A DNA stretch of 64,000 nucleotides from Devriesea agamarum (GTDB taxonomy: Bacteria > Actinomycetota > Actinomycetes > Actinomycetales > Dermabacteraceae): the NCBI RefSeq assembly GCF_900070355.1, contig NZ_LN849456.1:806001-870000 (forward strand). Reading direction: 5' to 3'. The notes beneath the pieces were generated by a model. That model saw only the letters and a list, made by a program, of their open reading frames with translations. It searched no databases and was not told the DNA's origin. Made by a program: the position numbers and the translations under genes. The first letter of the stretch is position 1. Every line of letters starts with the position of its first letter. Of the stretch, positions 10,266-64,000 are shown one piece after another.

Positions 10266-11207
10266 TCAGATGTCGTCGCACACGGCCCCGCGTCGGTCCA
10301 AACCTGGTCGGGCCAGCCGCCATGCCCCGGGATCTCCGACTGCACGACGCACAATACTGGCGAGATCCTCATCGACTCCGGCGAGCACCAACACCGATGG
10401 TCCCGCACCCGAAATAGTCGCCGGATAACCCTCTTGACGCAAGATACGTACGAGGTCCAGCGACTCAGGCATTGCCGGGGCCCGGTATTCCTGATGCAGA
10501 ACGTCTTCGCTTGCGTCCATCAGGAGGCTCAAGTCGCTGTGCTCATTAGTGAGAGCATGTACTAAAAGAGCGACCCGGCTCACCGCGAACACCGCATCGC
10601 GGTGGCTGACCTGTTCGGGGAGCAGACCTCGAGCATGGGAGGTAGCCAGCGTGTTCTGCGGGGACAATATGAGCGGATCCACCACCGAATGAGCCGGGAT
10701 TGGAAGCCGCATCGCCCGCGCAGTCTGCCCGTGTTGCCAGGCGATGGTCGCCCCACCCAACAACGCTGCCGCCGCGTTATCGGGATGCCCTTCCAGGTCA
10801 GAGGCCAACTGAAGCATTGCGGCAGGGTGAAGCACCTCATCCGGGTGTACTCCACGGGGCGTCACGAGTCCGCGAGCCAGCGCGATCCCCGCAATCACCG
10901 CTGCGGCCGAGGACCCCAACCCTCGTCCATGCGGAATTCTATTGATGGCGCGCAGACGCAGACCTGCCTGGGGAGCTCCCACATAATCGAGCGTGGTGCG
11001 CAGGGCGCGCACCACCAAATGGTCCTCGCCGCGGGGAACCTCATCACGTCCCTCCCCTTGGACCTCAATATCGAGACCACCGGCGAGCGCTTCAACCTCC
11101 AGGTCATCGCGAAGTCCCAGGGCAAGACCCAGGCAGTCAAAGCCCGGGCCTAGGTTTGCACTCGTCGCGGGCACGCTGACGCTAACTCCGGTTCGTTCAA
11201 TTCTCAC
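10266..11207 (-). CDS. thrB: Homoserine kinase
   Basis: A GHMP-family kinase of 313 residues that phosphorylates homoserine with ATP to give O-phosphohomoserine for ThrC. The family signatures are VPATSANLGPGFDCLG at the N-terminus, the ATP-binding loop HGRGLGSSAAAV and the C-terminal ATISGAGPSVLVL. The GTG at 11207 was chosen because GAGGAG sits just upstream and it places the first strand at the expected distance; the open frame continues ten codons further. It is the last of the hom-thrC-thrB cluster, 45 bases after thrC. Confidence 0.96.
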   Translation of the reverse strand: MRIERTGVSVSVPATSANLGPGFDCLGLALGLRDDLEVEALAGGLDIEVQGEGRDEVPRGEDHLVVRALRTTLDYVGAPQAGLRLRAINRIPHGRGLGSSAAAVIAGIALARGLVTPRGVHPDEVLHPAAMLQLASDLEGHPDNAAAALLGGATIAWQHGQTARAMRLPIPAHSVVDPLILSPQNTLATSHARGLLPEQVSHRDAVFAVSRVALLVHALTNEHSDLSLLMDASEDVLHQEYRAPAMPESLDLVRILRQEGYPATISGAGPSVLVLAGVDEDLASIVRRAVGDPGAWRLARPGLDRRGAVCDDI

Positions 11208-52410: not shown

Positions 52411-53421
52411 TTAGAAGACTCCCGGGTACAGGGCTTTCGCCAGGACCTCAACGGCACCGATATTGCCAAGCGTTCCCGGGTGCAAATCTCGCTCAGGAAT
52501 CGCAACCAGGCGGTCGTTCTTCACCGCCGACACATTGGGGAAGGTTTTCTTCAGGTAGTCCCTGGTCTGGTTCTCGTGCTCCGAACCGGTCACCCCGAAC
52601 ACGATCACCTCTGGATTGCGGGCCACCACCTCTTCGGGGTTGATCTGGGCGGCAAAAAACTTTGCGAATTGCGGATCCGTAGGGGAAAACACGTTCTTGC
52701 CGCCCGCCGAGGCCACGATATCGGCCTCAACTCCGGCGCCGATGGCACTCAGCGAGCCACCCTCAACAAAAAGCTGAGCGACAGTTGGACGCGGATGGCC
52801 CGAGATCTTGTCTTCCACCGCCTTCAACCGGTGCTTACCGTCTGCGATGAGCTTATTGGCCTCATCAGGAACGCCCATGATGGCACCAATGTTTTGGATA
52901 TCGGTGAAAACGTCCGCAACCTTCGCGGTATTACGACGGTCCTTACATCCACCGGTTGCGATGTACACATTGGCACCGTTATCGCGCAGCTGCTGAACAG
53001 TGGCAAAGCCCTGTTCCGCCGTGAATTCATACGAGGTCGGAGACACCACAAAATCCGGCGAAACCGAAAGCAACTTTTCACGTGATGGCGGCGCATCCGT
53101 GCTGAGCACCGGAATGTCCTTAGCCTGCTGAGCCACATCAGCGGGAAGCTCCGACACCCCGGTCTGAGCCTGAGCCACGATCGCATCACGCAACCCCATC
53201 CGAAGTAGCAGCTCAGTCTGCGTCGGCATCAACGAAACCACCTTGGTGGGCGTCTTATGGAAGACCAGCTGCTGGCCGCAGTTATCGATACGTTCGATCG
53301 CCTCGGTCTTTTTTGAATCTGCTTTGTCCGTGCTCACCGACGTTCCACAGGCGCTGAGAAGCAAAGGCACCGTCGCGATGGTAGCGATCATGGAGGTCAG
53401 GGAACGGGATGAGATTTTCAT
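52411..53421 (-). CDS. Metal-chelate/cobalamin-type ABC substrate-binding lipoprotein (BtuF/FepB fold)
   Basis: A 336-residue lipoprotein with the lipobox PLLLSACGTS near residue 25. The mature part matches class III binding proteins (Peripla_BP_2): DNCGQQLVF, TPTKVVSLMPTQTELLLRMG in the N-lobe and VEADIVASAGGKNVF, NPEVIVFG in the C-lobe. The ligand class includes siderophores, heme, cobalamin and F420-0 precursors; the sequence alone does not decide. The ATG at 53421 overlaps the ATPase stop by four bases. It is the last gene of the five-gene leftward operon. Confidence 0.88.
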   Translation of the reverse strand: MKISSRSLTSMIATIATVPLLLSACGTSVSTDKADSKKTEAIERIDNCGQQLVFHKTPTKVVSLMPTQTELLLRMGLRDAIVAQAQTGVSELPADVAQQAKDIPVLSTDAPPSREKLLSVSPDFVVSPTSYEFTAEQGFATVQQLRDNGANVYIATGGCKDRRNTAKVADVFTDIQNIGAIMGVPDEANKLIADGKHRLKAVEDKISGHPRPTVAQLFVEGGSLSAIGAGVEADIVASAGGKNVFSPTDPQFAKFFAAQINPEEVVARNPEVIVFGVTGSEHENQTRDYLKKTFPNVSAVKNDRLVAIPERDLHPGTLGNIGAVEVLAKALYPGVF

Positions 53422-54386
53422 GAGGTGGGGATTCCTTCCTGGGATCCGGGTGTTGGTGACACCGTGGTGTCGGCGGGCGCGGTCATTGAGGCTGTGCCCA
53501 CTGAATCCGCGTCGAACTGAGGAGTAGGCCTGGCTTCGCAGGCAGGCATGACATCGGGAACCGGCAGGGCATCGGAGGATTGCCTCGCGTCGAAGCGCGA
53601 GCACAACGAGTCATCGTGCGAAGCCCGCGCATCAAATAGGAAATGCTTTCGCCCGGTGCGAGGGTGGTTGACGGTTGTGGAGTCCACACCAAAGACGGAT
53701 CGAACAAGGCGCGCATTGAGGATGTCCTGGGGCGGTCCGTAGCTGATGAGCCGTCCATCTTTGAGGATCGCCAATGCGTCACAGGAATGAGCCGCAAGAT
53801 TCAGATCATGCAAAGCCACCAAGGCCGTACGCCCGCTAGCTTGAACTAAATCGAGAAGCTCCAGCTGGTGAGCGATGTCGAGGTGATTTGTCGGCTCATC
53901 CAAAATCAATACCGGCGTGTCTTGCGCCAAAGCCCGCGCAAACAGAACACGCTGCCGCTCGCCACCGGATAACGTCGAGAAAATCCGTTCAACCAGGTGC
54001 TCGGCCCCAACCTGAGCGAGGCAAGAATGCGCCATCGCGATGTCCTCTTGACGGTCCCGCCCAAACCCTCGACCATGGGGGATCCGTCCGAGAAGCACCA
54101 AGTCGATGACTGTGATCTCGAATTCCTCACTGTGTTCCTGGGACATGACTGCAACCCTGCGAGCCACCTCGGGCCGAGGCATAGCCGTCAGTTCATCGTG
54201 GTCATACCAAACCCTGCCCGAGGTGGCAGGCGATACCCCCGAGACGGCCCGTAGGAACGTCGATTTACCGCTGCCATTGGGACCCAGCAAACCCAGAACT
54301 GTCCCCGAGGGAACACAGAGGCTCACATCAGAGAGAATCCAACGCCCACCGCGGCGCACGCCGAGATTCGACGTTTCCACTCTCAC
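53418..54386 (-). CDS. FecE/BtuD-type ABC importer ATPase
   Basis: A 322-residue ATPase. Walker A is GPNGSGKST, the signature TLSGGERQRV, Walker B VLILDEPTNHLD, and the switch His in VALHDLNLAA. This is the FecE/FepC/BtuD class pairing with FecCD permeases. About 70 extra residues at the C-terminus, Asp/Ser/Thr/Pro-rich, exceed the usual 255-residue length. The GTG start overlaps the permease stop (GTGA). Confidence 0.9.
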   Translation of the reverse strand: MRVETSNLGVRRGGRWILSDVSLCVPSGTVLGLLGPNGSGKSTFLRAVSGVSPATSGRVWYDHDELTAMPRPEVARRVAVMSQEHSEEFEITVIDLVLLGRIPHGRGFGRDRQEDIAMAHSCLAQVGAEHLVERIFSTLSGGERQRVLFARALAQDTPVLILDEPTNHLDIAHQLELLDLVQASGRTALVALHDLNLAAHSCDALAILKDGRLISYGPPQDILNARLVRSVFGVDSTTVNHPRTGRKHFLFDARASHDDSLCSRFDARQSSDALPVPDVMPACEARPTPQFDADSVGTASMTAPADTTVSPTPGSQEGIPTS

Positions 54387-55537
54387 TGCCCCACTCCCAT
54401 CTTGTCTGCCCGATCACGGCGTAGCAGCCATAGAAAGAACGGGGCTCCGACGAAAGCGGTGAGCACACCGAGCGGAATTTCGGCTGGGGCAGCCAGGGTT
54501 CGGGCAAGCACATCACACAGCGCAAGAAACACCGCTCCAGCAAGTAAAGCAACCGGCAGCATTCGGCGATGATCAGCACCCACAACAATTCGGGCGATAT
54601 GCGGAATAATAAGCCCGACAAAACCGATCCCCCCGGAGACGGCAACCACGGATCCGGTTAACAACGCAGCGGCGATTAACACAGTGGTGCGCAACTGGTT
54701 CACCCGGATTCCCAAGGCTGACGCGGCGTCATCACCTATCAGCAGAGCGTTGAGCGCCCGTGACCGCAATGCGGCAAACAGCCCGATCACCGCCAGAGCA
54801 ATAGCCGGAAAAATGAGGTGGGACATGGTCGCCGCCGATACCGATCCCAACAGAAAAAACATAATGCCGGGCACGTTTTTGACGTCGGTGGAAATGGTGA
54901 GATAACTGGTGATAGCACTGAACAAAGACCCAAGGGCGACCCCTGCAAGGACCAGCCTTTGCGGCGCGATGCGACCATCCTTACGCGCGAGAATATAGAC
55001 GGCGGCGGTTGCGATCAGGGCACCGAGGAACGCAAAAAACCCCAGTCCGATGGTCGCGCTGATCCCAAAGACGATGGCTGACACAGCCCCGACCCCGGCG
55101 CCAGCCGAAACCCCAAGAATGTACGGCTCAGCCAGGGAGTTATGTACGACCGCCTGCATCAAGCCTCCCGCGAGCGCTAAAGCTGCCCCGGTGATCGCGG
55201 CGAGCACGGTTCGCGGCAGTCGAAACTGCCAGACCGCGTTGTCTTGGACGGTGGTGAGAGAACCATCTGACATCCACGACATATCAGGGATTAAGTGGCC
55301 GAGAATGAGCTGACCAGCCTGGATTGGAGATACCGGGATTGTTCCCACACTGGCCGATATCAAAATAATCGCTACCAGCGCCGCCGTGAGGATCAATATA
55401 AGCACGCGCGGAAGACGGGGATGGCGCCGACCCCGCTCAAGCGCGAACCTCAACGAGGCGGGAGACACCGATGCTCGGCGCGCGCGTATCTCCTCCGGTT
55501 GAGACGGAGGGGTCTGATCGGTTTGTGGCGATGTCAT
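54383..55537 (-). CDS. FecCD-family ABC importer permease
   Basis: A 384-residue integral membrane protein with about ten helices. Family motifs are FRLPRTVLAAITGAALALAG, QAVVHNSLAEPYILGVSAGA and SGGIGFVGLIIPHIARIVVG. It would form a homodimeric channel for an iron-, heme- or cobalamin-type ligand. A polar N-terminal region of about 45 residues precedes the first helix. Start ATG overlaps the stop of the S9 peptidase gene by four bases, tying the importer to the peptidase. Confidence 0.92.
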   Translation of the reverse strand: MTSPQTDQTPPSQPEEIRARRASVSPASLRFALERGRRHPRLPRVLILILTAALVAIILISASVGTIPVSPIQAGQLILGHLIPDMSWMSDGSLTTVQDNAVWQFRLPRTVLAAITGAALALAGGLMQAVVHNSLAEPYILGVSAGAGVGAVSAIVFGISATIGLGFFAFLGALIATAAVYILARKDGRIAPQRLVLAGVALGSLFSAITSYLTISTDVKNVPGIMFFLLGSVSAATMSHLIFPAIALAVIGLFAALRSRALNALLIGDDAASALGIRVNQLRTTVLIAAALLTGSVVAVSGGIGFVGLIIPHIARIVVGADHRRMLPVALLAGAVFLALCDVLARTLAAPAEIPLGVLTAFVGAPFFLWLLRRDRADKMGVGQ

Positions 55538-57579
55538 GGGTGGTGGCAGGCCTTTTCTGTGCGCTGGGGGCGAAGCCCAGTGGTTGCCGCGGCAAAACTG
55601 AGGATGACTGCGGCAAGATCATGAACCCGGTCAAGGTGGTTACTGCCGTGGCCGGTGTGCCGGGCGGTCCACATGGTGGCCTCGGCTCCGACGTCGCGCA
55701 GCACCCGAACCATGCGCTCGGTGTCGTCGGCAGCGACCCGGGAGTCTTCCTCCATCACGATGCCGAGAAAACGCGGTAGTTTTCCGGATGCGGACGTTAA
55801 CGCCTGGGCGCGGGCAAGCGGCGAAATTCGACGCAGCCGAGCCAGCTGTTCGTCCATGTCGTCGACGCATCCCGGTGACGCGACTATTCGGGGCTGACCG
55901 GACTGTATTCGGTTGAATATCTGGGAATTTTGGGTGGACTGAGTGACATTACTGGCGCCGAATTCCGTCATCCACAGGCGTCCGAGCGGATGGGCAGCAA
56001 GGTTCAATAGGTCCAATGGCGCAGCGGTCGATACGATCCCGGCGCAGAGCTCAGGGTGTCCGAGTCCAGCGCTCGCGACGATCACTCCCCCGTGGGAAGC
56101 ACCGACCAGGACCAGCTGATCGGCCCGGGTATAACCGGCCTCTATTAAGCTGCGGGCGGCACATACGAAATCATCGACCGTGCGGTGCTTGTGCTCGCCC
56201 CGACCGGCGTGATGCCAGGGGATACCGCGTTCGCCGCCACCGCGCACATGTGCAATGGCATACCGTCCGCCCTGTTCAACCCAGGCGGAAATGCTCGGGT
56301 CGAAGGTTGGTAAGCACGGCACACCGAAGCCGCCGTAGCAGGTCAGGATCATCGGCCCTGGCCGCGGGCCACATATCGGTTCGGTGACGGTGACGGTGAT
56401 ATCGGTTTCGTCGCTGGCATGCGCTGTATGCCAGTGCGTGCGCACCTGTCCGCGTGTTTGAGCTCTAATCGTCGAGCGCGAGTTCGCAACGACGTCTGCC
56501 CATCGGACCACTCGCGGAGGCTGCACTTGGTTTTCCACCACGAGCATCACCTGCTGGCGCCCTGCCTCGGTGACAGCATCACACAGGCCTGACGTCACAG
56601 CGTTATGACCGGTTTTCGCCGGGTCGGCTATAACAGCGTTATGGATGACGTCGGCGGACACCTCAGGTCCTGCACGATCAGCACAATCGACACCACCATG
56701 GCCGACGTCATCGAGCCCAATCGCGGTGGCGACGGCAGGTTTACCGTGACTCGTCACTGGGTACTCACCACTCGTGCGGCCACCTTCAATCTCGACAATC
56801 ACGCTTCGACCGTTGCGCACCACCACCGCGAAAACGGTCTCCTCTGCGACTGTCCAGCACATCACTTTGGTCTGCGTGCCATCCCACGACCACAGCGGCT
56901 CACCACGTTGGGGATCCACGGCGTGCAAACTCACGCCGTCGTCGACCAATGCCGCCGCACCGATGGCGGCAACGCGAACAATTCCTGGATACTGCGCGAT
57001 CATATGGCCGGATGCTCTGTCGATCAGACGGGTCGGGCGCTTAGGGGCGCTGATGGCGACCAAACCCTGCTCCCCGCCCGGAAAGAGCCTGCTGGTGGCC
57101 GCATCGGGGATGGAGTGCATGAGCACCTGATCGGTGTGAACCCGGTAGGTGACCGCTTGCCCTAGGGGTCTGGCAAAAAACTCTACGGCCAAGGAGTCCT
57201 TCGTCCACAGCATGGGCTCGTACCGGCAGCGCAGGTCAGGAAAGCGCCGTAGCTGACCAGATCGGACATGAAGAACTGCAAAATAGGCGTTTTCATCTGC
57301 GCGTTCAGCCAGCTGGAGTGCGATATGGCGCCGGTCTGGAGACGGCGCCATCGACAATATGTGCTGGTCAGTCTCAAAGAGTGGCCTGTCACCGTCGTAG
57401 ATACCGCGTCGGTGCCGTCCCGGTTTTCTCGACAGCGTGAAGCCACGCTCGGGGATACCTGGCCGGCCGTGGTGCTCCCAGCGGCGTAAACCAGCATCTA
57501 AAACCGGGTCAAGAGCATCTGCAGTGGGGTCATTTATGGGGATGCTATTGAGCCGTGGGGTCGTATCGATGGGGATCAC
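55534..57579 (-). CDS. Prolyl-oligopeptidase-family (S9) serine peptidase
   Basis: A 681-residue protein with an N-terminal beta-propeller-like region (about 50-400) and a C-terminal alpha/beta hydrolase (about 405-665). The triad looks intact: Ser495 in GASHGG, Asp612 in MEEDSRVAADD, and His644 in RHTGHGS. S9 enzymes cut small peptides, often after proline, and some fungal and plant members macrocyclise peptides. There is no signal peptide, so it acts in the cytoplasm. It sits between a propeller protein and an importer, all joined by four-base overlaps, opposite a RiPP biosynthetic operon. Start is GTG at 57579. Confidence 0.9.
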   Translation of the reverse strand: MIPIDTTPRLNSIPINDPTADALDPVLDAGLRRWEHHGRPGIPERGFTLSRKPGRHRRGIYDGDRPLFETDQHILSMAPSPDRRHIALQLAERADENAYFAVLHVRSGQLRRFPDLRCRYEPMLWTKDSLAVEFFARPLGQAVTYRVHTDQVLMHSIPDAATSRLFPGGEQGLVAISAPKRPTRLIDRASGHMIAQYPGIVRVAAIGAAALVDDGVSLHAVDPQRGEPLWSWDGTQTKVMCWTVAEETVFAVVVRNGRSVIVEIEGGRTSGEYPVTSHGKPAVATAIGLDDVGHGGVDCADRAGPEVSADVIHNAVIADPAKTGHNAVTSGLCDAVTEAGRQQVMLVVENQVQPPRVVRWADVVANSRSTIRAQTRGQVRTHWHTAHASDETDITVTVTEPICGPRPGPMILTCYGGFGVPCLPTFDPSISAWVEQGGRYAIAHVRGGGERGIPWHHAGRGEHKHRTVDDFVCAARSLIEAGYTRADQLVLVGASHGGVIVASAGLGHPELCAGIVSTAAPLDLLNLAAHPLGRLWMTEFGASNVTQSTQNSQIFNRIQSGQPRIVASPGCVDDMDEQLARLRRISPLARAQALTSASGKLPRFLGIVMEEDSRVAADDTERMVRVLRDVGAEATMWTARHTGHGSNHLDRVHDLAAVILSFAAATTGLRPQRTEKACHHP

Positions 57580-58763
57580 CTACCGATCGGATCGCGGGCG
57601 GAGCCGATCCAAAACAGCTGCCCACCTTCGTCGAGCCGGGTGGGAACGGTGATGGTATGCATATCCTCGCCACGCACTAGGTGAACCTGTCCGTCCCCAC
57701 CCCGGCTCACCGCGATGGTGGTTCCTGAGGGGTCAATCGCGACCGAACGGCGCTGGGCTGGGGAGTCTCCATCCGGTTCCCATGGCAGATGCCCAGGCCG
57801 AGGAGGATGAGACATCGGCGGAAGCCAGTGGGAACGGACGGGCTGCACACACCCTGCGCTGCGGTCGATCACGGTGAGGGTGTCCCCGTCGGGGTGGATG
57901 GTCGCCACAGCAGCGCACTGCCCGCTGAGACCGAACCGGAATGCGAGACCCGTCGGCAGACTGCACGACGACACCTCTGCGCTGCGGACGTCGATATCGA
58001 CCAGGGTGTTAGACCACGATGTCCATTCGGTCAGGCAGGAGGGTCCGCCGCGCACAATGCCGAGGGCCCTGCCGGTTGCTGCATCAAAACGTAGGTAAAA
58101 CGCTCGCCCGTGCACAGGCCACGGCACGATGCCAATGCATCGAGGTACACCGCCGTCAATGACGTATCGTTCCAGTCCGCGACCGGTTGCGGTCGCCATA
58201 ATTCCGCTCGCATGATCGACGACATCACCATGCCCGTCATCACCGATGTCGCGGCAAATCGCACCTTCTAGCGGGGGTACATGAGGCCCCACATTCAGAC
58301 ATTGCTGCAGAGGGAACGATTCAATGGCGCCGGGTTCGCGGTGCCGCAGGACCAGGTGTGTGCTGCCGTCGCGCTGATCCGGTGCAAACATCACCCCCGG
58401 TTCGCCGCGGCGACTGCGGAACCGGCATGAGGTGTCATTGTCACGATCAATGAGTGTCACTACATCGCTCCACGGCGATTCGTTGGCACCGAGGCCGGTG
58501 GTGACAGCGAGATAGGAATCACTTGGATCTGAGGCGAGGTGTTCCGCTGGGATAGCCACGGACACTGTGGATGTGCGTTCACCGGACACGGTGATGAGCG
58601 TTCCCTCACGGTCGTCAACGAACGCCCAGCGATCGTCACCGAAGGCGAGAATCCCGGCGTGTTCTGCGGCTATACCCATGCGAAACGCGCTTGCGAGGCC
58701 GTCCTGAACACGGTAGAGCTGGCCTGCCCGGTGGTCCGCGATCACGAGCTGGTGTGACAACAT
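57576..58763 (-). CDS. Beta-propeller-like protein, unknown function
   Basis: A 395-residue soluble protein made of repeated beta-rich units (for example LAFGDDRWAFVDDREGTLI, VAIDPSGTTIAVSRGGDGQV) typical of seven-bladed or WD40-like propellers. No catalytic domain follows; it resembles the propeller half of S9 peptidases without the hydrolase half. It is the first gene of the leftward operon and overlaps the S9 gene by four bases (GTGA). A substrate-gating or partner role for the neighbouring peptidase is inference. Confidence 0.7.
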   Translation of the reverse strand: MLSHQLVIADHRAGQLYRVQDGLASAFRMGIAAEHAGILAFGDDRWAFVDDREGTLITVSGERTSTVSVAIPAEHLASDPSDSYLAVTTGLGANESPWSDVVTLIDRDNDTSCRFRSRRGEPGVMFAPDQRDGSTHLVLRHREPGAIESFPLQQCLNVGPHVPPLEGAICRDIGDDGHGDVVDHASGIMATATGRGLERYVIDGGVPRCIGIVPWPVHGRAFYLRFDAATGRALGIVRGGPSCLTEWTSWSNTLVDIDVRSAEVSSCSLPTGLAFRFGLSGQCAAVATIHPDGDTLTVIDRSAGCVQPVRSHWLPPMSHPPRPGHLPWEPDGDSPAQRRSVAIDPSGTTIAVSRGGDGQVHLVRGEDMHTITVPTRLDEGGQLFWIGSARDPIGR

Positions 58764-58870
58764 GGGGCCACCATAGTTGAAATTGGTTGTCGTTTACATA
58801 ATGATGAGGGGCCTCACCGGTCCGCGCCACCAACCGATGAGCGTGGGCCACGTACCGAGAGGAGTCCCGC
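58764..58870. promoter_or_regulatory. Shared divergent promoter region of the RiPP and importer operons
   Basis: The 107 bases between the divergent starts contain an AT-rich core at 58773-58805. A TTGAAA element at 58777-58782 could serve as a rightward -35, with CATAAT at 58797-58802 nearby, though spacing is not canonical. An imperfect dyad with TTGAAA and TTTACA arms flanks the core and could be a shared operator. The precursor has a strong GAGAGGAG Shine-Dalgarno. Confidence 0.5.
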
Positions 58871-58969
58871 ATGAGCGAGAACACCGTCGTCGAGATCGAA
58901 GAGACCGAGCAGCTAGCTCATCTATCTGCCAGCCACTCGAACGCGCTCGTCGAGAACCCGTTCGACTGA
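58871..58969 (+). CDS. Predicted 32-residue RiPP precursor peptide
   Basis: A small gene with GAGAGGAG six bases before its ATG, ending in TGA at 58967-58969. The first 15 residues are acidic (MSENTVVEIEETEQL), as in many leader peptides bound by RRE domains. The last 14 residues read SASHSNALVENPFD. Ser19, Ser21 and Ser23 alternate with Ala20 and His22; there is no Cys. A single Pro30 precedes the last two residues. Directly followed by a stem-loop and the modification genes, this is the natural substrate candidate for the YcaO enzyme. Too short for usual gene callers. Confidence 0.72.
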   Translation: MSENTVVEIEETEQLAHLSASHSNALVENPFD

Positions 58970-59005
58970 TCCTGCAGACCTCACTGCCTAGGCCGTGAGA
59001 TATGA

Positions 59006-59041
59006 GTTCCGGTCGGGCAGCAAATGCTGTCCGGCCGGAAC
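59006..59041 (+). terminator. Stem-loop between precursor and modification genes
   Basis: Arms at 59006-59022 and 59025-59041 pair fully if two G-U pairs are allowed; realistic loop AAAT. No T-run follows. Such a hairpin would attenuate or process the transcript, leaving more precursor than enzyme message, a common arrangement in RiPP operons. Confidence 0.7.
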
Positions 59042-59060
59042 CGTAAGAGAGGTACAGCCC

Positions 59061-59909
59061 ATGCGTAGTCCGAACCACCAAGCAGCTATTCCCGGCACGG
59101 GCGCCACCGCACTCATGTCCGAGGACGGTAAAGGCGTCGTTCGCACCGCGTCCGGTCAATTCCTCCGCCTACAGACACCACCGGCGGACCTCATCGCCAC
59201 ACTCACCAACCCCACCGACCACACCGCAACCGAGCCTGAGGCCGATGAGCCCACCCGCGCTCACGCCACCCGGCTACAACACGAAATCGCCGCCAGAGAA
59301 ATTCGCGAGGCTGACAACCGCTGGCCACAGACCCGACGCAACGTGGCCATCACAGGAACCGGCGATATCCCCGAAAAGCTCGCCGCAGCGCTCCTAGACT
59401 GGGGAATCACCGCGCACTGCATTCCCACCGCGTCCGACCTCGATTTAACCGACACCCACTGGGACCTCGTCATCGGGTACGCCACCGGCCCCTCCGAACG
59501 CGAAGCATGGTCACGGCTTGACCAGTTACCGCGAAACGGCACCGCCTGGCTACGGGCATACCGCGAAGGTCACGTCTGCTACGTCGACCCCATCGCCATC
59601 ACCGAGCACGACCCCACCAGCACCCAGGTCACCAAACGCAGGCTAGCTGCCAGCCCAGTCCCCGCCGAACTCGCCGCGTGGCAGCGCACCGCGCCCGACG
59701 AACCCAATCCGCTGCCGCTCACCGCGCACACCTGGCTACTCGGACATATCCTCACCGTAGCCCTCAGCTGGGCACAAAACGCCCCAGATTGTGAGCGCTA
59801 CCGCTACACGCTGTGGAAACACGTGCCAGCCGCAGGCACCACCGATGAACATACGATCATTGCCTACCCGGCCCCGTTTCAGCCATCTCCACAGGGCGCC
59901 ACGGGATGA
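59061..59909 (+). CDS. RRE/E1-like partner protein of a TOMM cyclodehydratase (ocin-ThiF-like)
   Basis: A 282-residue protein. Residues about 12-50 (ATALMSEDGKGVVRTASGQF...) have the beta-rich pattern of a peptide-recognition element. From about 93 a Rossmann-like E1 core begins with NVAITGTGDIPEKLAAALLD, and WLRAYREGHVCYVDPI lines up with the GP-motif region of TOMM C-type proteins. The zinc CxxC pairs of full E1-like cyclodehydratase partners are missing. The probable job is to bind the precursor leader and present the core to YcaO. The ATG at 59061 follows AGAGAGG; a start at 58995 would place the stem-loop inside the gene. Confidence 0.75.
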   Translation: MRSPNHQAAIPGTGATALMSEDGKGVVRTASGQFLRLQTPPADLIATLTNPTDHTATEPEADEPTRAHATRLQHEIAAREIREADNRWPQTRRNVAITGTGDIPEKLAAALLDWGITAHCIPTASDLDLTDTHWDLVIGYATGPSEREAWSRLDQLPRNGTAWLRAYREGHVCYVDPIAITEHDPTSTQVTKRRLAASPVPAELAAWQRTAPDEPNPLPLTAHTWLLGHILTVALSWAQNAPDCERYRYTLWKHVPAAGTTDEHTIIAYPAPFQPSPQGATG

Positions 59910-61057
59910 CACCGCAAACCGGTAACCCCCAGCCCCAACAGGTCCGCGCCAGCCGGGCTCACACCTGTCAGACGGACGATGGCGTCCATCTGCGTGGCCT
60001 TCTATGGCAATGCCCCACCGCGCGAGCCATTGCCATTATCCGCACCCCCTATAACGCCGTCGAGCACGCCTCTACCGCCCTCGCACTCAACAGCCGCGGC
60101 TTCCATTGCCTGGTCCAAGATGTTCGCGGGCGATACCAATCCGATGGCCACTGGCATCCTTACCACCACGAAGCCGCCGACGGACTCGCAACCCTGCAAG
60201 CCATAGCCGCGCAGTACCCACACTTACCAATTGTCCTCTTCGGATCCTCCTATGCCGCGCACACAGCCCTCGAAACGGCATACGCAGCGAGCGCATCACC
60301 ACGCACGTCCCCACCCGCCGCGATCATGACACTTGTTCCAGCGCTCGGCTTGGCAGAAACCGCCTGGGATCAGCACGGCGCCCCAGAGATCAGGAACCGC
60401 ATCGGCTGGTGGCACCAGCATGGACGGACTCGACAAGCTCAGATAGCTCTGTCACCAGCTGAGTTGTCACAGCGTGAAGCCGATGTCGCCGAGCTCGGCA
60501 TGGTCGAGGCAGCCAGGTCATGGGGCTGGGACGACAACTGCATCGACGCCTGGGCACAGCTATGGACCGCCGACCATCTCGACCTCAACGCGCGATATGC
60601 GCACTTGCACATGCCTTTGCTCGTGCTCAGCGGAACCGAAGACTTCTTTGACCATCACGCTCGACGCCTGGCATCAGCCTGGGCCGGCCAGAGCCATTTC
60701 GCGACGGGTCCCTGGGGGCATCAGCTCGTGGCTGGCGTCCCTGATCCCGCAGTGCGCCACGCAATTCAAGCCGAAGGCGGACCGGGACATCTCATGGACC
60801 TGTGGCTCGCCGCCCATGGTTTCTCCAATAGCCCCACACCTTTATCCGAGATCATATCCACCTATCGGCAAACCCAATCCTGGTTCGATCTCTCCGATGC
60901 GACCTGGCATTTTGGTCCACTGACAACACCTCCACCACCGCTCCCGCGACTGCAGCTCGACGCCGTGCCTGGTCTGCATCATCCACCTAACCGTGTGGCA
61001 ACCGAACCTGTTTCATATTCCCGTACACCCAGCAGCGAACTGGAAACCTTGCGATGA
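59906..61057 (+). CDS. CocE/NonD-type (S15) alpha/beta hydrolase
   Basis: A 383-residue hydrolase of the X-Pro dipeptidyl-peptidase/CocE group. DVRGRYQSDGHWHPYHHEAAD is the family signature region. The triad candidates are Ser115 in FGSSYAAH, Asp246 in SGTEDFFDHH and His272 in GPWGHQL. Typical S15 enzymes release X-Pro dipeptides or hydrolyse esters/amides. ATGA overlap with the upstream gene places it in the maturation operon, so processing of the modified peptide is likely. No signal peptide. Confidence 0.85.
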   Translation: MTPQTGNPQPQQVRASRAHTCQTDDGVHLRGLLWQCPTARAIAIIRTPYNAVEHASTALALNSRGFHCLVQDVRGRYQSDGHWHPYHHEAADGLATLQAIAAQYPHLPIVLFGSSYAAHTALETAYAASASPRTSPPAAIMTLVPALGLAETAWDQHGAPEIRNRIGWWHQHGRTRQAQIALSPAELSQREADVAELGMVEAARSWGWDDNCIDAWAQLWTADHLDLNARYAHLHMPLLVLSGTEDFFDHHARRLASAWAGQSHFATGPWGHQLVAGVPDPAVRHAIQAEGGPGHLMDLWLAAHGFSNSPTPLSEIISTYRQTQSWFDLSDATWHFGPLTTPPPPLPRLQLDAVPGLHHPPNRVATEPVSYSRTPSSELETLR

Positions 61058-62487
61058 CCTCAACTTCTCCTACCCACTGCGACACCACCAACGCGGGGTC
61101 GGCAACGCAGGCTCCACCACTACCTGAGCTTCCCGTCGATGCACTCGTCGATAAAGAATGCGGGATCATCCGAAGCGTCAGAGAAGTTCCCCACCCGCCC
61201 GGAGCACCCCGTGCGTATCTAGCTCTCACAGCAGCTGTTGCCGATGCGCGACAACTCGGCGAATGGCCAGCAGACCGAGTATCGCTGGGAACCTCATTTG
61301 CAGATCCAGCCCAAGCCCGCATTGCCGCTATCGCCGAAGGAGTCGAACGATACTGCGGAAACTGGCTACCTCCTGAGCTTCCCACCCATGACCTGCGCAT
61401 TGGCACGCATCGGGAGCTGACAGCTGAGGGGTTAAACCCGATTAACCTTGACGACCTCCCGACCTTCGCCGACTGGCAGTATGCGCGTAATGCTTTTCCC
61501 TACACCCGGTTGACCGACACCACCCCGACTCTATGGACCGAGTGTTCAGATCTATCCGGCACCCCGGTATGGATGCCCGCCTCCCTGATATACCTCAACT
61601 GGCGACAGTCACGGTTTCGCCACCTGCCGCGCATCCACCACCTCAATTACGCGGGAATCGCCACCGGCCAAGGTGCAGACGATGCCCGTGACCGCGGGGT
61701 CCTCGAAATCATCGAACGTGACGCCCTCGAACTGTGGTGGCATCTCGACGGTCCTACAGCGGGCATCGATCCCGCCAGCGTGCCTGGGCTGAGCGAGGAC
61801 CTTCGCGGCAGTAACCTCGAGGTTTCCCTCGTCTCCATGCCCTCTGAGTTCGCTCCCGCCATCGGAGCGTTGGTATACGACCCCGACCGTCAGCTATATG
61901 CGGCTGGATTTTCCGCCGCTTTGGATCCGGTGCGAGCCGCACGCAAAGCCGTCCTGGAGGCGGTCCACACCTGGGTCTACACCCAGGGATGCACCGATCA
62001 CGACGGTTGGGTTTTTCGCGCCGTTGAGCAGGGGTTAATGGCTAAAGGGCTTTACCTCGACTATCGCGCCGACGCCCGCTATCTCGACGCCGCCGGACCA
62101 CAGTGCGAACACGTGGTCGATCTCGGGGCCCATGTCCAGGTGTGGTTAGATCCCCGAGTCCATCACGAGGCTCGCCGCTTCACCGACCCTGCTCACGGCA
62201 TCATCTCTGTTGCGGACATCCCTGCTACCACCATGGCTGAGGTCTACCACAAGCTGGCTGATGCTGGTCACCGCGTTATCACCCGGGACGTGACCACCGA
62301 CGATATCCGGCGAACACCTTTGCGCGTGGTCCGCAGTTTTGTGACCGGTCTCATCCCTAATGCACCGGCTGCGTTCACTTACGCGGGAATGAGCCGGTTC
62401 CCCCGCGCAGCAAAAGAACGGGGATGGCGCACCTCGTGGAGCAACACGCCCGCTGATCTATCGCTGATCCCAGCACCCCACATGTAG
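61054..62487 (+). CDS. YcaO-domain azoline-forming cyclodehydratase
   Basis: A 477-residue YcaO enzyme that uses ATP to cyclise Ser/Thr/Cys side chains onto the peptide backbone. The ATP/Mg motifs are visible: AEGVERYCG (about 94-102), EIIERDALELWW (about 218-229), and KAVLEAVHTWVY (about 298-309). The C-terminus ends IPAPHM, resembling the proline-rich PxPxP tail of TOMM YcaO enzymes. It overlaps the S15 gene by four bases. The standalone E1-like partner upstream and the SagB-like gene downstream mark an azol(in)e pathway rather than thioamide chemistry. Confidence 0.92.
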   Translation: MTSTSPTHCDTTNAGSATQAPPLPELPVDALVDKECGIIRSVREVPHPPGAPRAYLALTAAVADARQLGEWPADRVSLGTSFADPAQARIAAIAEGVERYCGNWLPPELPTHDLRIGTHRELTAEGLNPINLDDLPTFADWQYARNAFPYTRLTDTTPTLWTECSDLSGTPVWMPASLIYLNWRQSRFRHLPRIHHLNYAGIATGQGADDARDRGVLEIIERDALELWWHLDGPTAGIDPASVPGLSEDLRGSNLEVSLVSMPSEFAPAIGALVYDPDRQLYAAGFSAALDPVRAARKAVLEAVHTWVYTQGCTDHDGWVFRAVEQGLMAKGLYLDYRADARYLDAAGPQCEHVVDLGAHVQVWLDPRVHHEARRFTDPAHGIISVADIPATTMAEVYHKLADAGHRVITRDVTTDDIRRTPLRVVRSFVTGLIPNAPAAFTYAGMSRFPRAAKERGWRTSWSNTPADLSLIPAPHM

Positions 62488-62492
62488 GCCCT

Positions 62493-63563
62493 ATGACGCA
62501 ACCAGCCATATACGCGGGCCCCGCCTTAGCTTCTGATGCCGTTGTTCCTCAGCCACCGGCAATAGCGTCTTTGCCCCATATACTCGCTCATTCCCTGGGA
62601 CCGCAAAAACCCGGGCCGCCTCGACCTCCCGGCCCTAAAGTAAACCCCTGGGACGCATCAGCGACCTGGCGGATGGCCGTCCTCCCATCGCAGATCAACT
62701 CCCTGCTCACCGGCCTGTGGGGCAGCCGCGGCTACCATTGCGGCGCTGATGGCCGACCCACACGGATTCGTCAACGCCCGATCCCCTCAGCTGGCGGAAC
62801 CTACGCGGTGCAGACGCATCTTGCGATCGGATATCCCGGTGCATACGGCCTTGAACCTGGCCGATACGTCCTCGACCATGAACGTGATCTCCTCCTGCGC
62901 AGACGCGATAGTTCAAGACCTCTGCCGACCGGGGCATGGCTCATCTTTTCTGTTCAACCAGGACGCAGCTTTGGCCGATACCAGCATCGTTCTTGGCCTC
63001 TATGGATCGCCGATACCGCATATGCACTGGTTGCTACCCAATTCCTGCTCAACCAGCCCCTGCCGCCTCTCCTCGGACCCTCCGATCAGCTGCGCGAACT
63101 CTCCGCTGTAGCCCGTGGTTCCGATACCTCATGGTGGGTACAGCGCGGACTGGCACCGGAAATACCATTAGCTGCTGTGCGGTTACCGGGCAAGCTGCGA
63201 GTATGCCGCGACCGCAGCACTGCCCTAGCGCTTCGGCGTTCGCCGTCTCACGCGTCTTTTGCCTCCAACCTCGAGGGGGCGCGGAACAACCACGCCCGAG
63301 AACTAGCCGTGCGATCAGGGCAATCCTGGGTTGCCGGCGCAGACAGGGTCGAAGCCTGGAGCGTCCGTCTCAATTCGCCATCCCAATCCATTTTTCAGAT
63401 GCTGTGGACCGCCCATCAAAGAGCTGCCCGCCTGACCTATGACAGCGCGCTCTCCGGTATTTGGCGGTGCCGACCAATCTCCGGTTTTCCCGCTACCTCA
63501 ACATCGTGGATCGTCCATGCCCTTGCCATGCTCCGAGTAAGAGATACGGAGACCCTGTCATGA
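62493..63563 (+). CDS. SagB/ThcOx-like FMN azoline dehydrogenase
   Basis: A 356-residue nitroreductase-fold protein. The SagB signature is IPSAGGTYAVQTHLAI (about 97-112), and FGRYQHRSWPLWIADTAYAL (about 160-179) corresponds to the R..Y.HR....D.G region of the family. Such enzymes oxidise azolines to azoles with FMN. A Pro-rich N-terminus (about 35-55) precedes the fold. It starts six bases after ycaO. The C-terminal third is less typical, so a partial or altered activity is possible. Confidence 0.82.
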   Translation: MTQPAIYAGPALASDAVVPQPPAIASLPHILAHSLGPQKPGPPRPPGPKVNPWDASATWRMAVLPSQINSLLTGLWGSRGYHCGADGRPTRIRQRPIPSAGGTYAVQTHLAIGYPGAYGLEPGRYVLDHERDLLLRRRDSSRPLPTGAWLIFSVQPGRSFGRYQHRSWPLWIADTAYALVATQFLLNQPLPPLLGPSDQLRELSAVARGSDTSWWVQRGLAPEIPLAAVRLPGKLRVCRDRSTALALRRSPSHASFASNLEGARNNHARELAVRSGQSWVAGADRVEAWSVRLNSPSQSIFQMLWTAHQRAARLTYDSALSGIWRCRPISGFPATSTSWIVHALAMLRVRDTETLS

Positions 63564-64000
63564 TGATCGTGCGTGAGCTGTGGCGGGAGGCCATGCGATT
63601 TCCCGCAGCTCTTTCCGCCAGCGTCTTTTTTCTCCTGCTGGTATTCGGCACCTATATAGCGCAAGCCATCGGTACCGCGTGGGCCATGTCGGCGGTTATT
63701 GGCCGTCACACAGATCAGATCTGGGCCGCGTTATTGCTGATCGCGGGCGTGGCTCTGCTCCGATTAGTGCTATCGGTAGCACAGACAGCCTCGGCAAACC
63801 GCCTGGGTGGGCAGGTGAGACAAACCCTCCGGGTTCGTTCTCTCACCCGTACTTTGCGGGCACAGCGCCTTCACGATACGGCAGCTCGCGACGGCAGCCT
63901 CAGCGCGACGCTCGGAGACGGAATCGACGGCACCGACGCGTACGTTTCAAAATACATTCCCGTCATTACGCAGGTGTTCATTGCCTGCCCGGTGATTGTG
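63560..64000 (+). CDS. ABC exporter subunit, 5' part
   Basis: The ATG overlaps the end of the SagB-like gene (ATGA) and the frame stays open to the window edge (147 codons). The product begins with basic residues, then helices at about 14-45 and 55-78 (LLLIAGVALLRLVL) separated by a polar loop, followed by a stretch (GQVRQTLRVRSLTRTLRAQRL) typical of the first cytoplasmic coupling region of CydD-like ABC exporters. It presumably exports the mature peptide. The ATPase domain lies outside the window. Confidence 0.75.
   Translation, partial: MMIVRELWREAMRFPAALSASVFFLLLVFGTYIAQAIGTAWAMSAVIGRHTDQIWAALLLIAGVALLRLVLSVAQTASANRLGGQVRQTLRVRSLTRTLRAQRLHDTAARDGSLSATLGDGIDGTDAYVSKYIPVITQVFIACPVIV

What the first reader, a model, noticed from the sequence alone, without database searches (positions are those of the whole stretch)
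58871..64000. Apparently undescribed azol(in)e RiPP operon with a Cys-free 32-residue precursor
A short acidic leader-like peptide, a hairpin, an RRE/E1-like protein, an S15-type hydrolase, YcaO, a SagB-like dehydrogenase and an ABC exporter are co-directional with overlapping starts. These families together define a TOMM pathway. The candidate core S-A-S-H-S-N-A-L-V-E-N-P-F-D lacks Cys, so rings would be oxazol(in)es from Ser only. I recognise no characterised TOMM with this gene set or core.
Basis: partly seen in the sequence, partly recalled or inferred. Interest (0 to 1): 0.93.

Follow-up and report, generated by a model that had tools for sequence, protein, structure and literature searches.

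The report
Zinc-controlled streptamidine-type peptide gene cluster
This stretch holds a known kind of bacterial peptide-making gene cluster (the streptamidine family, not a new azole pathway); in its relatives the control region carries the DNA mark recognised by the zinc sensor Zur, with a weakened copy here, so the cluster would likely switch on when zinc is scarce and its peptide likely helps to gather zinc.

Summary
The genes are real, but the system is not undescribed. The 32-residue ORF passes NCBIfam's streptamidine-family model (65.8 bits, cut-off 40), and the gene set matches the ami cluster published in 2021. The cluster also reaches left to 52411 (AmiX propeller, S9 peptidase, FecB/FecCD/FecE importer) and right past the window (amiT1, amiT2).

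New here: a palindrome matching the published actinobacterial Zur box lies upstream of amiA in 78 of 78 promoters at >=9/12 positions (shuffle mean 2.4) and in 70 of 78 at >=10/12 (0.14), in 15 named genera. Of 27 exact copies in 28 ami-bearing genomes, 11 lie at ami loci, 8 at znuA, COG0523 or zur-like genes, 5 beside ZnuC-like ATPases, 2 are unassigned, 1 unexamined. A matrix trained on non-ami Zur sites ranks 58778-58792 first of 63,980 window positions (17.8; runner-up 17.3), though this copy is degenerate.

Most likely: a Zur-repressed zinc-acquisition cluster. Zinc binding is unproven; the published hexapeptide bound no metal.

The parts
52411..53421 (-). FecB-type substrate-binding lipoprotein (importer); start set at the ATG that overlaps fecE by 4 bases (the longest ORF starts at 53604)
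   Evidence: 48-68% identical copies beside or near ami genes in related loci; lipobox by eye
53418..54386 (-). FecE-type importer ATPase
   Evidence: ABC_tran 1.1e-31
54383..55537 (-). FecCD-type importer permease (one gene, where Streptomyces ami loci show more than one place of match)
   Evidence: FecCD 1.2e-92
55534..57579 (-). S9-family (prolyl oligopeptidase) peptidase, S495/D612/H644 conserved; predicted to act on the peptide inside the cell
   Evidence: Peptidase_S9 1e-29; PDB prolyl endopeptidases; conserved residues in 23 sequences; gene in 24 of 80 named loci
57576..58763 (-). AmiX: beta-propeller protein
   Evidence: homologue of the Streptomyces gene at amiX's place; model mean pLDDT 92.9; closest solved folds AztD
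58778..58792 (.). Zur-box-like operator TGAAATTGGTTGTCG (9 of 12, degenerate) between the two operons; a second overlapping register at 58784-58798
   Evidence: rank 1 and rank 10 of 63,980 positions with a matrix from 13 non-ami Zur sites
58777..58805 (+). sigma-70-like promoter predicted for the amiA operon, overlapped by the operator
   Evidence: only promoter-like site in 58600-59200; shuffle mean 0.2; a consensus match only
58871..58969 (+). amiA: streptamidine-family precursor, leader MSENTVVEIEETEQLA, predicted core HLSASH, follower SNALVENPFD
   Evidence: NF040714 65.8 bits, cut-off 40
59006..59041 (+). intercistronic hairpin (16-bp stem, no T tract)
   Evidence: similar stems in relatives
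59061..59909 (+). amiB: RRE/E1-like YcaO partner
   Evidence: model and fold matches to TruD, McbBCD, LynD
59906..61057 (+). amiC: S15-type alpha/beta hydrolase, predicted leader peptidase; S115/D246/H272 conserved
   Evidence: Peptidase_S15 4.9e-16; conservation in 79 sequences
61054..62487 (+). amiD: YcaO enzyme
   Evidence: YcaO 1.5e-41; TIGR03604 198.5 bits, below cut-off 219.25
62493..63563 (+). amiE: flavin-dependent dehydrogenase-like, named by place and by similarity to the same gene in related loci
   Evidence: no family model matches
63560..64000 (+). amiT1: ABC exporter, continues beyond the window to 65350; amiT2 follows at 65347-67011 (window numbering)

Best explanation
This is a streptamidine-family (ami) peptide gene cluster with an S9 peptidase in its import operon, and its two divergent operons are likely repressed by zinc-bound Zur at one operator between them and so would be switched on by zinc starvation to make, export and re-import a peptide that likely gathers zinc. 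Shown: gene content, precursor family, the conserved operator in relatives, and that many of the operator's other genomic sites stand at zinc genes. Inferred from the characterised homologue: AmiB presents the AmiA leader to AmiD, which with ATP forms a six-membered N-terminal amidine on core HLSASH once AmiC has removed the leader; AmiT1/T2 export the product. Inferred from anatomy and untested: the FecB lipoprotein with FecCD/FecE brings the loaded product back in, and the S9 peptidase and AmiX process it or take over its metal inside the cell. Predicted hexapeptide [M+H]+ 633.310 (the same sum gives 647.326 for streptamidine, as published).
For: Family: NF040714 above cut-off; gene order shared with 80 named loci; published gene set. 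Operator: 78 of 78 promoters at >=9/12 (shuffle mean 2.41), 70 at >=10/12 (0.14); it fits the S. coelicolor Zur ChIP motif (passages), 33 of 78 at 11 of 11 fixed positions, shuffle mean 0. Exact copies are 27 in 28 genomes, reversed control 0: 11 at ami, 8 at znuA/COG0523/zur-like genes, 5 beside ZnuC-like ATPases. In the window's own genome the one exact copy is at the start of znuA, whose downstream genes include a Fur-family gene. Matrix from non-ami sites: 58778-58792 is rank 1 of 63,980. Importer operons that stand apart carry their own box in 8 of 8 loci looked at. No IdeR-like box (0 of 78 at >=12/19; consensus recalled).
Against: The window's own box is degenerate (9/12), absent from its genome's list at <=2 mismatches, and only just ahead of the next position (17.8 against 17.3). 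The motif was first read off ami promoters, and the 28 genomes were chosen for having ami, which favours ami hits. Of three sites at <=1 mismatch in the window's genome one (1482322) stands by an alpha/beta hydrolase gene, not a known zinc gene. 51 of the 78 promoters are from Streptomyces and not independent. PMC8442711: streptamidine bound no metal in their assays, including Zn(II), and the amiD mutant was like wild type under metal starvation. AmiX shows no profile relation to AztD.
Confidence: 0.72

Rival explanations
1. A new azole TOMM whose core Ser residues become oxazoles.
For: YcaO of SagD type, E1-like partner and a dehydrogenase are all present; oxazoline-like shunt products were raised in the amiE and amiX mutants of the homologue.
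Against: The precursor belongs to a characterised family whose main product has an amidine and unmodified Ser and Thr; the paper notes the absence of Ser/Thr/Cys-rich regions in these precursors.
Confidence: 0.05
2. The cluster is Zur-controlled, but its peptide does not carry zinc: it is a signal, a zinc-sparing factor or an agent against competitors that is made when zinc is short, and the importer takes it up for sensing or recycling.
For: Published negative metal-binding and metal-starvation tests; the authors themselves suggest signalling or development.
Against: A FecBCDE-type importer is required for production of the published compound, comes in two unlike sequence types and keeps its own Zur-like box when it stands apart; Zur-controlled clusters named in a review are metallophore clusters (coelibactin, EDDS, pseudopaline; passages); no antibacterial or antifungal activity was found.
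Confidence: 0.25
3. Another Fur-family regulator (iron, nickel or peroxide sensing) acts at these boxes, not Zur.
For: Fur-family operators share the 7-1-7 form (recalled); the importer is of siderophore type; the window's genome has two Fur-family genes.
Against: The same motif stands at znuA, COG0523 and zur-like genes in these genomes and fits the Zur ChIP motif.
Confidence: 0.06
4. In this organism zinc control has been lost or is weak, so the cluster is expressed otherwise. (Not exclusive with the best explanation for the family.)
For: Three of 12 fixed positions are lost at 58778-58792, while znuA in the same genome keeps an exact box.
Against: It is still the best of 63,980 positions in the window and lies in the only predicted promoter; 7 other promoters of the 78 also reach only 9/12.
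Confidence: 0.25

Closest known systems
Streptamidine (ami) cluster of Streptomyces albidoflavus J1074 (PMC8442711, parts 1-4 of 5 read, the fifth being references; MIBiG BGC0002115)
   Same: Precursor family, AmiB, hydrolase, YcaO, dehydrogenase, two ABC transporters, FecBCDE-type importer and AmiX
   Different: Core HLSASH instead of HLSATH; import genes in one minus-strand operon with AmiX and an S9 peptidase; FecB, FecE and one FecCD gene instead of four importer genes; the Zur operator is not mentioned in that paper's main text (0 occurrences of Zur, palindrome or promoter)
Zur-controlled metallophore clusters: coelibactin (S. coelicolor) and EDDS (Amycolatopsis japonicum) (passages of PMC6103462 and PMC12161575)
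   Same: A biosynthetic cluster with Zur boxes in an actinobacterium
   Different: Those are not ribosomal peptides (recalled); zinc binding is not shown here
Bottromycin and klebsazolicin (amidine-bearing RiPPs, as cited in PMC8442711)
   Same: YcaO-made amidine ring in the characterised homologue
   Different: Other precursors and gene sets; klebsazolicin blocks translation, streptamidine was reported not to
AztD zinc chaperone (PMC6689063, passages)

Membership tests
Streptamidine family RiPP (motif A) | Precursor passes the family model NF040714 | tested here: met
   65.8 bits, cut-off 40
Streptamidine family RiPP (motif A) | amiB, amiC, amiD, amiE, amiT1, amiT2 downstream of amiA | tested here: met
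   amiT2 lies beyond the window
Streptamidine family RiPP (motif A) | FecBCDE-type importer genes and amiX beside the precursor (usual in the major subset) | tested here: met
   FecB, FecE, FecCD and AmiX in the divergent operon
J1074-type sub-architecture (over 90 BGCs in PMC8442711) | Four separate importer genes amiF1-F4 | tested here: not met
   Three importer genes, with an S9 peptidase in the operon
Streptamidine family RiPP (motif A) | Product with a six-membered N-terminal amidine | not testable with these tools
   Needs MS and NMR
Azol(in)e RiPPs (TOMMs) | YcaO, E1-like partner and dehydrogenase encoded together | tested here: met
   dehydrogenase by orthology only; SagD-family score below its cut-off
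Azol(in)e RiPPs (TOMMs) | Azol(in)e rings in the product | not testable with these tools
   The characterised homologue has none
Zur regulon | Zur box in the promoter, family level | tested here: met
   78 of 78 promoters at >=9/12, 70 at >=10/12; motif shared with znuA, COG0523 and zur-like genes
Zur regulon | Zur box in this window's promoter | tested here: inconclusive
   Degenerate (9/12) yet rank 1 of 63,980, runner-up close
Zur regulon | Zur binds and represses in vivo | not testable with these tools
   Needs EMSA, footprint or a zur mutant
Zincophores | Product binds zinc and supports zinc uptake | not testable with these tools
   Published hexapeptide: no binding detected
AztD zinc chaperones | Match to the AztD family model or profile | tested here: not met
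   0 of 34 AmiX proteins match NF038015 at E <= 10; hhalign probability 8; fold similarity only

The most novel reading that the evidence does not exclude
The ami clusters make the first ribosomally encoded zincophore. The true product is longer than the published hexapeptide: a two-histidine, dehydrated and AmiE-oxidised peptide running through the invariant SNALVENPF segment. It is exported by AmiT1/T2, re-imported with zinc by the FecBCDE-type importer and cut up inside the cell, in this branch by the S9 prolyl oligopeptidase. Streptamidine is then the remnant left after re-import. That would explain why the importer genes are needed for its appearance, why AmiE is essential although streptamidine is not oxidised, why the hexapeptide binds no metal, and why the 'follower' is more conserved than core position 2.
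Probability: 0.28. Interest if true: 0.9.

Novelty: new variant of a known kind. Interest (0 to 1): 0.66.

Why it matters
The paper that described streptamidine, made by a cluster family found in over 230 species, states that its biological role is unknown. A Zur-type operator conserved over 15 named genera names the likely signal (zinc starvation), a growth condition in which to look for the real product, and a likely function, and makes all three testable in strains that already exist. It would add a ribosomal peptide to the Zur-controlled metallophore clusters, and it marks a branch with a dedicated S9 peptidase.

Tried and rejected
Azole reading: rejected on the published structure of the homologue. 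Iron control: no IdeR/DmdR-like box upstream of amiA (0 of 78 at >=12/19; consensus recalled). AztD membership of AmiX: fold similarity only; hhalign probability 8 and 0 of 34 members match NF038015; kept as a hint. PDB sequence searches: the AmiB profile gave only weak hits, best E 0.002 to an unrelated transferase; the AmiX profile best E 0.014 to profilin; AmiE best E 0.56. Second NCBIfam model NF040715: this precursor scores 21.3 bits, cut-off 45, not a member; that model was found in 0 of 396 genomes of the phylum, and nothing rang in the controls, so no conclusion. S. albidoflavus J1074's own promoter: not identified among the loci held, not done. Distribution among close relatives: AmiD-like proteins at E <= 1e-30 in 2 of 58 genomes, one being the window's own and the other the distant two-YcaO cluster of G035; NF040714 in 19 of 394 genomes of the class, own included, 18 over the cut-off.

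Literature: 'streptamidine' is in 12 papers of the library (only PMC8442711 was opened). Searches pairing Zur with zincophore and Streptomyces, Zur with RiPP or YcaO, Zur with biosynthetic clusters and LogoMotif, zincophore with RiPP and amidine and Zur with EDDS showed in their listings no paper that by title or abstract start links ami clusters to Zur or reports a RiPP zincophore; the listings showed 20 of 42, 25 of 394, 15 of 15, 20 of 134 and 6 of 6 papers. Subscription journals are mostly not held, and antiSMASH 7 (listing only) predicts regulator sites, so a tool output may already flag such boxes. Passages only were seen of PMC5472717, PMC12161575, PMC6103462, PMC6689063 and PMC7463823.

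Rows dropped and limits: 3 of 80 named loci (L009, L050, L061) gave no amiA. Of 157 relatives found only the best 80 were kept. In the class-wide draw 25 loci were read: 4 duplicates and 2 without a motif match (L160, L166) left out; of 19 distinct promoters (the window's own included, two from one genome) 18 reach >=9/12, and L151 does too (11/12) once its start is set by hand to an in-frame GTG. These partly come from the same genomes as and are not an independent sample. Of 27 exact sites one (G815 contig 100) was not examined. The 5 ZnuC-like neighbours are ATPases of 33-44% identity, not proof of zinc genes. One search used the pattern with any centre base, with G or C. Genes around sites were named by eye except the ten scanned; the matrix was trained on sites so named.
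Full report
WHAT IS THERE. The described genes are present. The precursor ORF 58871-58969 (MSENTVVEIEETEQLAHLSASHSNALVENPFD) hits NCBIfam NF040714 'streptamidine family RiPP' at 65.8 bits, cut-off 40. The plus operon is amiA, a hairpin, amiB, amiC, amiD, amiE, amiT1; the genome stretch L004 shows that amiT1 and amiT2 complete it beyond the window's end. The minus operon 58763-52411 (AmiX propeller, S9 peptidase, FecCD, FecE, FecB, with 4-base overlaps between neighbours) belongs to the same cluster: the same genes stand beside amiA in related loci.

KNOWN FAMILY. PMC8442711 (parts 1-4 of 5 read) describes this gene set: precursor, AmiB (predicted TruD-like), hydrolase, YcaO, dehydrogenase, two ABC transporters, FecBCDE-like genes and amiX. 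In S. [quoted passage not shown] Genes B to E and the importer genes F1-F4 were essential, T1-T2 important, X not required. The authors detected no metal binding, no metal-starvation phenotype and no antibiotic activity, and call the role unknown. By homology the core here is HLSASH; dehydrated [M+H]+ 633.310.

RELATIVES. One scan of genome contigs gave 157 relatives of AmiD, of which the best 80 were kept, mostly Streptomyces and Nocardiopsis. amiA was found in 77 of these 80. In 88 motif units of 78 precursors, the window's included (60 distinct segments), His1, Ser3, His6 and the follower residues S-N-A-L-V and N-P-F are invariant, with codon variation at 6 of those 8 follower sites, while core position 2 is L, D, A or H. 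Two further precursors from the class-wide draw (L151, L159) read THSAGH in place of the core, so His1 is not universal, but SNALVENPF is kept. So the 'follower' is under stronger constraint than part of the published core: it is either a recognition element or part of the product. The S9 gene is found in 24 of 80 loci, all outside Streptomyces; the word peptidase does not occur in the paper's main text.

THE OPERATOR. Aligning the DNA upstream of amiA from 26 loci outside Streptomyces, the window's included, showed a palindrome TGAnAATnATTnTCA. In the 150 bp before amiA it reaches >=9 of 12 fixed positions in 78 of 78 loci (mean of 100 dinucleotide shuffles 2.41, maximum 7), >=10 in 70 (0.14), >=11 in 36 (0.01) and 12 in 10 (0.0); random 150-bp stretches of the same loci reach >=10 in 16 of 3022. 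All 15 named genera have it at 9 or better; 51 of the 78 are Streptomyces. Most Streptomyces loci carry another site close to the start of amiX. The pattern fits the S. coelicolor Zur ChIP motif tGaNNatSatNNtCa (passages of PMC5472717); 33 of 78 promoters match that motif at all 11 fixed positions, shuffle mean 0.0.

WHICH REGULATOR. Exact copies are rare: 27 in 28 whole genomes, all chosen because they hold an ami locus, against 0 for the reversed pattern. By tblastn of the flanks, 11 lie at ami loci (one at a FecB-like gene just behind amiT2 in L011), 8 at znuA, COG0523 or zur-like genes, 5 beside ZnuC-like ATPases, 2 unassigned, 1 not examined. With one mismatch allowed there are 31 sites in 10 of these genomes, reversed control 2; among them are znuA operons with Fur-family genes, COG0523 genes and L28/S14 ribosomal genes, others have no evident zinc link. 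In the window's own genome the one exact copy stands at the start of znuA, whose downstream genes include a Fur-family gene; of two one-mismatch copies one stands between a COG0523 gene and L28/L31 genes, the other by an alpha/beta hydrolase gene. Hence the operator is most likely Zur's. COG0523-type genes neighbour 16 and S14/L28/L31-type ribosomal genes about 10 of the 82 loci searched.

THE WINDOW'S OWN SITE. A matrix trained on 13 sites, none of them ami, ranks 58778-58792 first of 63,980 positions in the window, score 17.8; the next is 17.3 at 1780-1794. Training sites score 21.5-33.4 and the 78 ami promoters 17.2-34.3. The site overlaps the only predicted promoter (58777-58805), 15 bp before amiX and 93 bp before amiA. 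It is degenerate: 9/12, and not among the <=2-mismatch sites of its genome. Control in this organism is likely but weaker, or partly lost.

MECHANISM. Shown: genes, precursor family, conserved operator, its zinc company. Inferred: with zinc, Zur blocks both divergent operons; without it they are made together. AmiB, AmiD and AmiC make the amidine peptide, T1/T2 export it, FecB/FecCD/FecE bring it back, and S9 and AmiX work inside on the returned product. The hairpin behind amiA (16-bp stem, z -4.1; stems in 22 of 22 loci folded) likely sets a surplus of precursor over enzymes. The published negative metal tests used streptamidine; if that is a remnant, the importer requirement and the essential AmiE would make sense. 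That last step is speculation (novel case).

VERDICT. The cluster is a member of a known family in an S9-bearing architecture; the azole claim fails; the new result is the Zur-type operator and the zinc-acquisition function that it predicts.

Noticed in passing
L198 (G035:C34:33000-52000): small ORF 10694-10804, minus strand; boxes at 2134 and 14329: A distant two-YcaO cluster in a genome of the window's family, with a 36-residue candidate precursor (MTELNITEVATERSDDQILAPNANNHGHVSTAFAWS) just upstream of a 741-aa YcaO frame, exporter genes, two FecBCDE-type importers, a COG0523-like gene and Zur-like boxes; possibly a separate Zur-controlled RiPP family.
   Followed up: partly
G000:C1:2733943-2734383 and 2744339-2744728 (L003, L002): Two further weak YcaO-like frames about 10 kb apart in the window's own genome (28% and 32% identity to AmiD); perhaps another RiPP locus.
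   Followed up: no
L158, L164, L166 (G145): One genome of the same order holds three matches to the streptamidine precursor model on two contigs.
   Followed up: no
L151, L159 (G219, G209): Precursors with core THSAGH in place of HLSATH but unchanged SNALVENPFD, each with a box at 11/12 80 bp before the start (L151 from a GTG set by hand); a natural test of which part is the product.
   Followed up: partly
L006, L007, L010-L015, L017, L018: Tandem precursors: two complete leader-core-follower units in one ORF; 10 of 78 precursors have two units.
   Followed up: no
L011: Record titled Glycomyces fuscus carries a locus like those of Nocardiopsis, plus an extra FecB-like gene with an exact box behind amiT2; the record may be misnamed.
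   Followed up: no
G000:C1:2212288-2213385: The window's genome also encodes an AztD-like protein (NF038015, 399.4 bits, just under the cut-off of 400), so a second zinc-uptake system may exist and could mask an ami phenotype.
   Followed up: no
window:1780-1794: Second-best Zur-like site of the window (TGAAAATGGTGGTCA, score 17.3); neighbouring genes not examined.
   Followed up: no
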